From: Mycobacterium sp. Z3061
GTDB lineage: Bacteria; Actinomycetota; Actinomycetes; Mycobacteriales; Mycobacteriaceae
Assembly: GCF_031583025.1 (NCBI RefSeq)
Contig: NZ_CP134062.1
Coordinates: 3,534,001-3,598,000 of the forward strand
Length of the DNA: 64,000 bases
Direction: 5' to 3'
This document shows, in pieces, positions 32,581-34,229 of the stretch. Positions within the stretch are counted from its first letter, which is position 1; each line of letters begins with the position of its first letter. Position numbers and translations under genes: made by a program. The notes below the pieces were generated by a model. The model saw only the letters and a list, made by a program, of their open reading frames with translations. It did not search any database and was not told the DNA's origin.

Positions 32581-34229
32581 CCGGATGCCAGCTGCCGGGC
32601 AGCAGCGGCAGCCGCGGTCCGTCGCTCATCCCAGGACCGGCCAGCGTGGTCAATCCGGCAGCGGCGCCGGCGGTTTCGTCGGTCACGGTGCCCGCGAAAC
32701 CCATCGGCTGCGCACCCCGCTCGGAGGCCTCGGTGGTCGGCGGCCCTTCCCACTGCGGGTCGACGTCGACATTCATGTCCAGGAACTCGTCGCCGAACCC
32801 ACGGCTTTTGGCGGCCTTGCGGCGGCGCGCCCGAGCCTGCTCTCGAACCGCGGCAGCGGCCGCCTGGGCGGCGCTGTCGGGCTCTGACGCCTGCCTTTTC
32901 GCTGCGTTACTCGCCTTCGCGCTGAGCCCGGAACCGAATCCGATCCCGGGCGGGGCCGCGGCGTAGGGCGGCGTGAAACCGGCTCCACCCCCGGCGGGCG
33001 GCGCCGGTGCCGAAGGGGAGGGAGGCGGGGCTCCCGCGGTGCTGCTGGGCGCGGGCGCCGGCGCCGACGTGTGCTCTTCCGATCTGTGCGGTCACCGACG
33101 ACAGCCCCACCGCCGGCAACGGAGGCGGCGTACCCATCGGCACCGGCGCCGGCGCCGCAACCGGTGACGGCAGAGCGGCCAGCCCGGCCAATCCGGCCAG
33201 GCCGCCCACCGAAGCCAGCGGGGCGGCAGCCACCGGGAGGGCCGCGGCAAGCGCAGCCGGCTGGCTGGTCAAGGTGAAAACCTCAGCCAGATGGGTCGGC
33301 CAGTCGAACAGCTCCAGGCTGACCAGGTATTGGACGGCCAGTACCGGGTTGGTCTGCAGGTAGACGAAGAACTGTTGAAAGTCCTCGCCCAGCTCCAACG
33401 TCCGGGCTACCCAGAAGGCCGCCACGGTCGGATCCGTGTAGTAGTCGTATTCGAGCCCGTTCAGCGTGCCGTCGAGCGGATTCCAGTCGTAGCCGAAGTT
33501 GCGAAGGATGTTGGCGACGAAGTCATCCAGGGCGTTGTCGACCAGCGGATCGTGGGCGATCGTGTCGTTCCCGATACCGAACTGCTGAAGGATCGCGTCG
33601 AGCTGCGGGTTGTTGATGAGGTTCTCGAATTGCGTGAACGGATTGAGCTGGGGGTTGCTCATGAAGTCCTGGTATGCCTGCAGCGGGTTCTGCAGGATCT
33701 GCGGCGCCGGATCGGCCGGGAGCGCCGCCGCCAGTGCTGTGTCGGATGCGGCCTGGTAGCCACTCATGACGGCCGCGGCCTGAGTCCACATGCGGGCGTA
33801 GTCGACCTCATTGAGCGCGATCGGGATGGTGTTGACACCGAAGAAGTTCGTCGCCAGCAGCGCCCCGTGCACAGCGTGATTGGCGGCCAGCTCGGCCATC
33901 GTCGGCATCGTGGCCAGCGCCGTCAGGTAGGCGCCGGCCACCGCCTCTTCACGTGCCGCGTTGTCAGCACTGATCTGGCCGGCCAGTGTCAACCATTCCA
34001 GGTAGGGCAGGTGCGCCGCGGCGTACGCCTGCGCGCTGGGTCCCGCCCAGACCCCGCCCTGCACGCCGGACAGCACCGCGACGAGTTCGTCTGCGACGGT
34101 GGCGTATTCGGTGCTGAGTGCCGACCACGCCGACGCGGCGGCGAGTAGCGGGCCCGGCCCCGGGCCACTGCTCAACAGCGCCGAGTGCACCTCGGGCGGT
34201 GCGGCCATCCACCCGTTGAAACCCGTCAT
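32564..34229 (-). CDS. PPE family protein, PPW subfamily; reading frame broken by inserted adapter sequence
   Basis: The PPE domain (1-180) has PPEVHSALLSSGPGPGPLLA and the WxG-type hairpin. A hydrophobic middle follows, then a Pro/Ala-rich hinge. After codon 381 the frame runs into 20 nt of Illumina adapter (33066-33085) and would end falsely at 32907 with a 440-aa product. On the other side, a second frame continues a PPE tail: APAPSSTAG, PPYAAAPPGIGFGSG, then MGFAGT and LPLLPGSWHP (the GFxGT and PxxPxxW marks of PPE-PPW), ending VTDSQ at 32564. The true protein is therefore about 545 aa. ATG 34229 gives the usual pre-PPE segment. I do not recall the gene here in M. tuberculosis. Confidence 0.88.
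33066..33085. other. Illumina TruSeq adapter remnant (assembly artefact)
   Basis: GACGTGTGCTCTTCCGATCT is identical to the last 20 nt of the TruSeq index-side adapter. Its reverse complement begins AGATCGGAAGAGC. Twenty identical bases are not expected by chance. It lies exactly where the PPE reading frame shifts, so genome sequence here was replaced or interrupted by untrimmed adapter. Confidence 0.97.

What the first reader, a model, noticed from the sequence alone, without database searches (positions are those of the whole stretch)
33066..33085. Illumina adapter inside a PPE gene creates a false frameshift
The 20 bases GACGTGTGCTCTTCCGATCT are the 3' end of the TruSeq adapter. The PPE reading frame is correct before them and continues in another frame after them, to GFAGT and PxxPxxW motifs and a natural stop at 32564. 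The net frame change corresponds to an insertion of 1 mod 3, for example 19 extra bases or a replacement, so some genome sequence could be missing. Any automatic annotation would report a 440-aa PPE with a chimaeric tail beginning IGRAHV.
Basis: partly seen in the sequence, partly recalled or inferred. Interest (0 to 1): 0.85.

Follow-up and report, generated by a model that had tools for sequence, protein, structure and literature searches.

The report
Sequencing adapter overwrites mycobacterial PPE gene
A 20-base piece of a sequencing-kit adapter was left in this assembled genome, where it breaks a PPE gene that is intact in a relative; the same error recurs across the chromosome and is an artefact, not biology.

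Summary
Window 33066-33085 is an exact 20-base match to the Illumina TruSeq adapter. The PPE frame is good up to it and resumes in another frame after it, ending at 32564. Three additions. (1) The single-contig 6.79-Mb chromosome holds 28 internal adapter stubs, 18 of the index-side and 10 of the universal-side oligo; the reversed control gives 0. No other genome in the 396 sampled from the genus has more than 7. (2) The sites are very GC-rich (mean flank GC 0.805 against 0.674 in the window); 13 of 28 lie beside PE, PGRS or PPE domains by Pfam. (3) At the four sites comparable with a same-species genome, the adapter stands in place of 14-22 genome bases, so it overwrote sequence rather than being cleanly inserted. 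The relative's PPE gene is intact, in a 561-codon open frame. Most likely adapter read-through tails entered the consensus where Illumina depth was very low (inferred). Adapter contamination is well known; the internal, overwriting pattern in a closed genome is a modest twist.

The parts
33066..33085 (+). TruSeq index-side adapter stub, 20 bases (read as AGATCGGAAGAGCACACGTC on the minus strand); artefact
   Evidence: exact match, 0 expected; one of 28 in the chromosome
33086..34229 (-). 5' part of a PPE gene, true frame
   Evidence: PF00823 E 1.7e-58 on 33084-34229, which includes two adapter bases in its last codon
32564..33064 (-). 3' part of the same PPE-PPW gene, true frame, with GFAGT and PLLPGSW and stop at 32566-32564
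   Evidence: PF18878 E 1.1e-19; translation; 95% identical to the same-species orthologue, whose frame is open for 561 codons
32907..34229 (-). false 440-aa ORF with a chimaeric tail beginning IGRAHV

Best explanation
The 20 bases are residual Illumina TruSeq adapter in the assembled consensus, not genome. Shown: exact adapter sequence; 28 such stubs of both adapter oligos in one single-contig chromosome; 27 of 28 in DNA more GC-rich than 95% of the window; at 4 of 4 sites that could be compared, the adapter stands in place of a similar number of genome bases. Inferred: in GC-rich PE_PGRS/PPE stretches Illumina depth was very low, and the few reads there came from short fragments and ran into the adapter. 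Their untrimmed tails of about 20 bases were laid over the long-read or draft backbone by a polishing or gap-closing step and became consensus. Because the laid-over tail and the sequence under it differ slightly in length, the frame is lost.
For: Exact match, none expected. 28 copies of the 13-base core against 0 for the reversed control; the 10-base core also occurs exactly 28 times, control 1. 18 index-side stubs of 19-22 bases and 10 universal-side stubs of 17-23 bases, one of them (L016) only with a mismatch at base 15 (lengths include any chance agreement of the following genome bases). Flank GC mean 0.805; 27 of 28 above the window's 95th percentile. The same-species genome G006 lacks the core and has the locus intact at 97% identity. 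Adapter stands for genome bases at 4 of 4 sites: 16-21, 14-22. All 28 lie more than 50 kb inside a single contig.
Against: I found nothing that speaks for the bases being genomic. Against the detailed mechanism: raw reads were not seen, so depth, read length, trimming and assembler are unknown. The narrow length range is not explained, and stubs shorter than 10 bases were not looked for. The replaced genome bases resemble the adapter no more than chance clearly allows (fractions 0.09, 0.33, 0.43, 0.07). Junction placement differs between for two sites (20 or 14 bases; 21 or 22). Three of the four comparison loci have other length differences to the relative: the matches differ in length by -8, +19 and -27 bases over about 3 kb, and the 300 bases after the adapter hold 9 and 25 gap columns at L018 and L028, so only the focal site is a clean comparison.
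Confidence: 0.98

Rival explanations
1. Gap closing or local reassembly: adapter-bearing reads extended one contig edge and were joined to the other edge by a short chance overlap, instead of being laid over an existing backbone.
For: Variable net length change: -2 to +4 at 4 sites, -3 to +7. At the focal site the relative agrees with the last 4 adapter bases. Many gap columns just after the adapter at L018 and L028.
Against: Agreement at the other three right-hand junctions is 0, 1 and 1 base, no sign of overlap joining. Near-equal lengths are easier to explain by overlay, though a closer that respects gap size would also give them.
Confidence: 0.35
2. Real sequence: a chance 20-mer or a biological insertion.
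For: None found.
Against: 28 copies from two different kit oligos with 0 reversed controls; absent from the same-species genome.
Confidence: 0.005
3. The PPE gene carries a genuine frameshift in addition to the adapter.
For: The frame changes across the adapter.
Against: One gap column in 2201 against the intact orthologue, in the bin that holds the adapter start; no gap in the 300 bases on either side.
Confidence: 0.02

Closest known systems
Illumina adapter contamination of microbial assemblies (Moeller et al. 2024, PMC11536531; first of three parts of the text read, plus a term search of the main text)
   Same: Same oligo, same kind of error, many copies in one assembly, forward- and reverse-specific adapter parts next to the common core.
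   Different: Their adapters concentrate at contig ends. Here all 28 are deep inside one contig, replace genome bases at the 4 sites compared, and sit in GC-extreme DNA; trimming contig ends would not find them. The terms internal, middle of contig, frameshift, Mycobacterium, GC content and replac- do not occur in that paper's main text.
PPE-PPW subfamily of PPE proteins
   Same: PF00823 N-terminal and PF18878 C-terminal domains, found on the two pieces searched apart.
   Different: The break is in the assembly; intact copies exist in relatives.

Membership tests
Illumina TruSeq adapter contamination | exact adapter sequence starting at the first adapter base | tested here: met
   20 of 20; the full oligo letters are recalled public knowledge; the 12-base core and the two oligo continuations also appear in PMC11536531
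Illumina TruSeq adapter contamination | enriched genome-wide over control | tested here: met
   28 against 0
Illumina TruSeq adapter contamination | absent from another assembly of the species | tested here: met
   G006: 0 copies, locus intact; 'same species' is the tool's label
Illumina TruSeq adapter contamination | located at contig ends, as in the published cases | tested here: not met
   28 of 28 internal, nearest 51,992 bases from an end. By contrast 78 of the 80 loci listed lie within 200 bases of what appears to be a contig end (my count from the listing, taking shortened stretches as contig ends; 40 of the 120 stretches were not listed, and the scan stopped at its limit)
Illumina TruSeq adapter contamination | present in raw reads only at read ends | not testable with these tools
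   no reads held
PPE-PPW protein | PPE N-terminal domain | tested here: met
   PF00823
PPE-PPW protein | PPW C-terminal region with GFAGT and PxxPxxW | tested here: met

The most novel reading that the evidence does not exclude
A distinct overwriting mode of adapter contamination exists in closed genomes: stubs of narrow length (about 17-23 bases) replace genome bases at the most GC-rich spots, so that PE_PGRS and PPE genes are hit selectively and appear falsely variable, while end-of-contig screens miss it.
Probability: 0.45. Interest if true: 0.3.

Novelty: not a real feature. Interest (0 to 1): 0.15.

Why it matters
It flags one single-contig mycobacterial genome in which 28 places carry adapter: 13 beside PE, PGRS or PPE domains by Pfam, up to 24 if glycine-rich PGRS-like frames are counted. 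Any study of PE/PPE variation or pseudogenes that includes it could count false frameshifts. A search for the 13-base adapter core, with the reversed core as control, finds such genomes at once.

Tried and rejected
Chance match: rejected. Clean insertion of adapter: rejected at the focal site, where it replaces about as many bases. Stubs of 10-12 bases that start at the first adapter base: none; shorter ones were not looked for. One-mismatch variants of the core: none further; the reversed control gave 1. PE_PGRS sites in the same-species genome: (queries covering 5 sites) gave paralogue-like matches of 63-76% over three of the sites and no match across the other two; the 76% match (L217) could be a diverged orthologue and was not analysed. 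The overwrite result therefore rests on 4 of 28 sites (L001, L013, L018, L028). L204, fetched to cover two further sites, was not used. Resemblance between adapter and replaced bases: inconclusive. NCBIfam on the two PPE pieces: no match. Papers: one search listed 2 papers, neither opened; one search found 81 and listed 20, of which one (PMC11536531) was opened; a search for Mycobacterium, PE_PGRS, adapter contamination and assembly together found 0 papers; the polishing search found one diatom paper, not opened. I make no wider claim about what is in print.

Full report
Observation. The 20 bases at 33066-33085 match the TruSeq adapter exactly, with no other match in the window at up to 3 mismatches and none in 100 shuffles. 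On the minus strand they start with the complete adapter core and stop after 20 bases; the next adapter base is not present. The automatic ORF is 440 aa, 32907-34229, with a tail beginning IGRAHV. The two sides, searched apart, are PPE (PF00823, E 1.7e-58) and PPE-PPW C-terminal region (PF18878, E 1.1e-19), in different frames. The second side has GFAGT and PLLPGSW and its stop at 32566-32564.

Genome-wide. The window lies in a single contig of 6,790,973 bases with completeness 100. The 13-base core AGATCGGAAGAGC occurs 28 times (13 forward, 15 reverse) and its reversed control 0 times. Allowing one mismatch adds none (control 1), and the 10-base core also occurs exactly 28 times (control 1); stubs shorter than 10 bases were not tested. 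18 continue as the index-side oligo (19-22 bases) and 10 as the universal-side oligo (17-23 bases; L016 has a mismatch at base 15 and then goes on). These lengths include any chance agreement of the next genome bases. All are internal: the nearest lies 51,992 bases from a contig end.

Comparison with other genomes. Of 396 genomes of the genus sample, own included, 26 have the core. The other 25 hold 48 copies in all (my sum from the listing), at most 7 each, several at contig ends; the reversed control gave 4 hits in the 396. By my count from the listing, taking shortened stretches as contig ends, 78 of those 80 have their matches within 200 bases of a contig end; the exceptions are L079 and L101. 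That is the published pattern (PMC11536531, first part of three read). The present genome differs in having all its stubs far inside one contig.

Where they fall. The 200 bases around the sites (100 each side) have mean GC 0.805 against 0.674 for 200-base stretches of the window, and 27 of 28 exceed the window's 95th percentile. The background is the window only, not the whole chromosome. Pfam on stop-free pieces next to the adapters (all 28 sites, mostly one piece each) gives PE or PGRS above cut-off at 11 of 28, PPE plus PPE-PPW at 2 of 28 (the focal site and L018), a CbiA-type domain at L028, and nothing above cut-off at the other 14 (L026 has a sub-threshold PGRS match). 21 sites have an adjacent stretch with at least 35% glycine; with L003, which Pfam shows as PE plus PGRS, that makes 22 of 28 PE_PGRS-like. 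The frame there was picked partly for glycine and there was no control, so this count leans upward.

What the adapter did. A genome labelled same species, G006 (380 contigs, no copy of the core), holds the focal locus at 97% identity, and its gene is open for 561 codons. More distant relatives also have open frames of 566 and 587 codons (G228, G047). The unmodified alignment has 57 differing columns of 2201 and one gap column, in the 20-base bin holding the adapter start. At the four sites with orthologous DNA in G006, the adapter's 19-21 bases stand where the relative has 16-21 bases, or 14-22 with another way of placing the junctions. So genome bases were overwritten, with small length errors. 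Caution: the focal site is the only clean comparison. At L018, L001 and L028 the matches differ in overall length by -8, +19 and -27 bases over about 3 kb, and at L018 and L028 there are 9 and 25 gap columns in the 300 bases after the adapter. Five other sites could not be compared, and 19 were not tried.

Mechanism. Shown: adapter, two oligo types, GC-rich sites, replacement at 4 of 4 comparable sites. Inferred: low Illumina depth, short fragments, untrimmed tails, and a polishing or gap-closing step. The narrow length range is unexplained. Overlay and gap closing cannot be told apart here: resemblance of adapter and replaced bases is not clearly above chance, and agreement at the right-hand junctions is 4, 0, 1 and 1 bases.

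Verdict. The finding is correct, but it is an assembly artefact of a known kind. It matters for quality control of PE_PGRS/PPE genes in this genome. Mycobacterium is inferred from PPE and PE_PGRS genes. On checking, I lowered the probability of the novel reading from 0.5 to 0.45, because three of the four comparisons have other length differences nearby and very short stubs were not tested.

Noticed in passing
own chromosome, L001-L012 and L014-L028: 27 further adapter stubs of about 17-23 bases, 12 of them beside PE, PGRS or PPE domains by Pfam.
   Followed up: yes
L018, base 1501 on: A second PPE-PPW gene has its adapter in the same part of the gene, between the PPE domain and the PPW region.
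   Followed up: partly
L001-L028: Universal-side stubs follow C-rich strands in 9 of 10 cases, index-side stubs in 6 of 18 (Fisher p 0.006, post hoc); perhaps a read-2 bias in GC-rich DNA.
   Followed up: no
G231 C1 and C2: Another genome of the genus with five adapter cores at inner positions of its first two contigs, possibly the same internal mode.
   Followed up: no
window 61754-64000: A PE_PGRS-like open frame of 749 codons running off the window, in a stretch of GC 0.769 over 62001-64000 with no adapter match.
   Followed up: no
L079: A Methanothrix MAG contig with the 20-mer in mid-contig.
   Followed up: no
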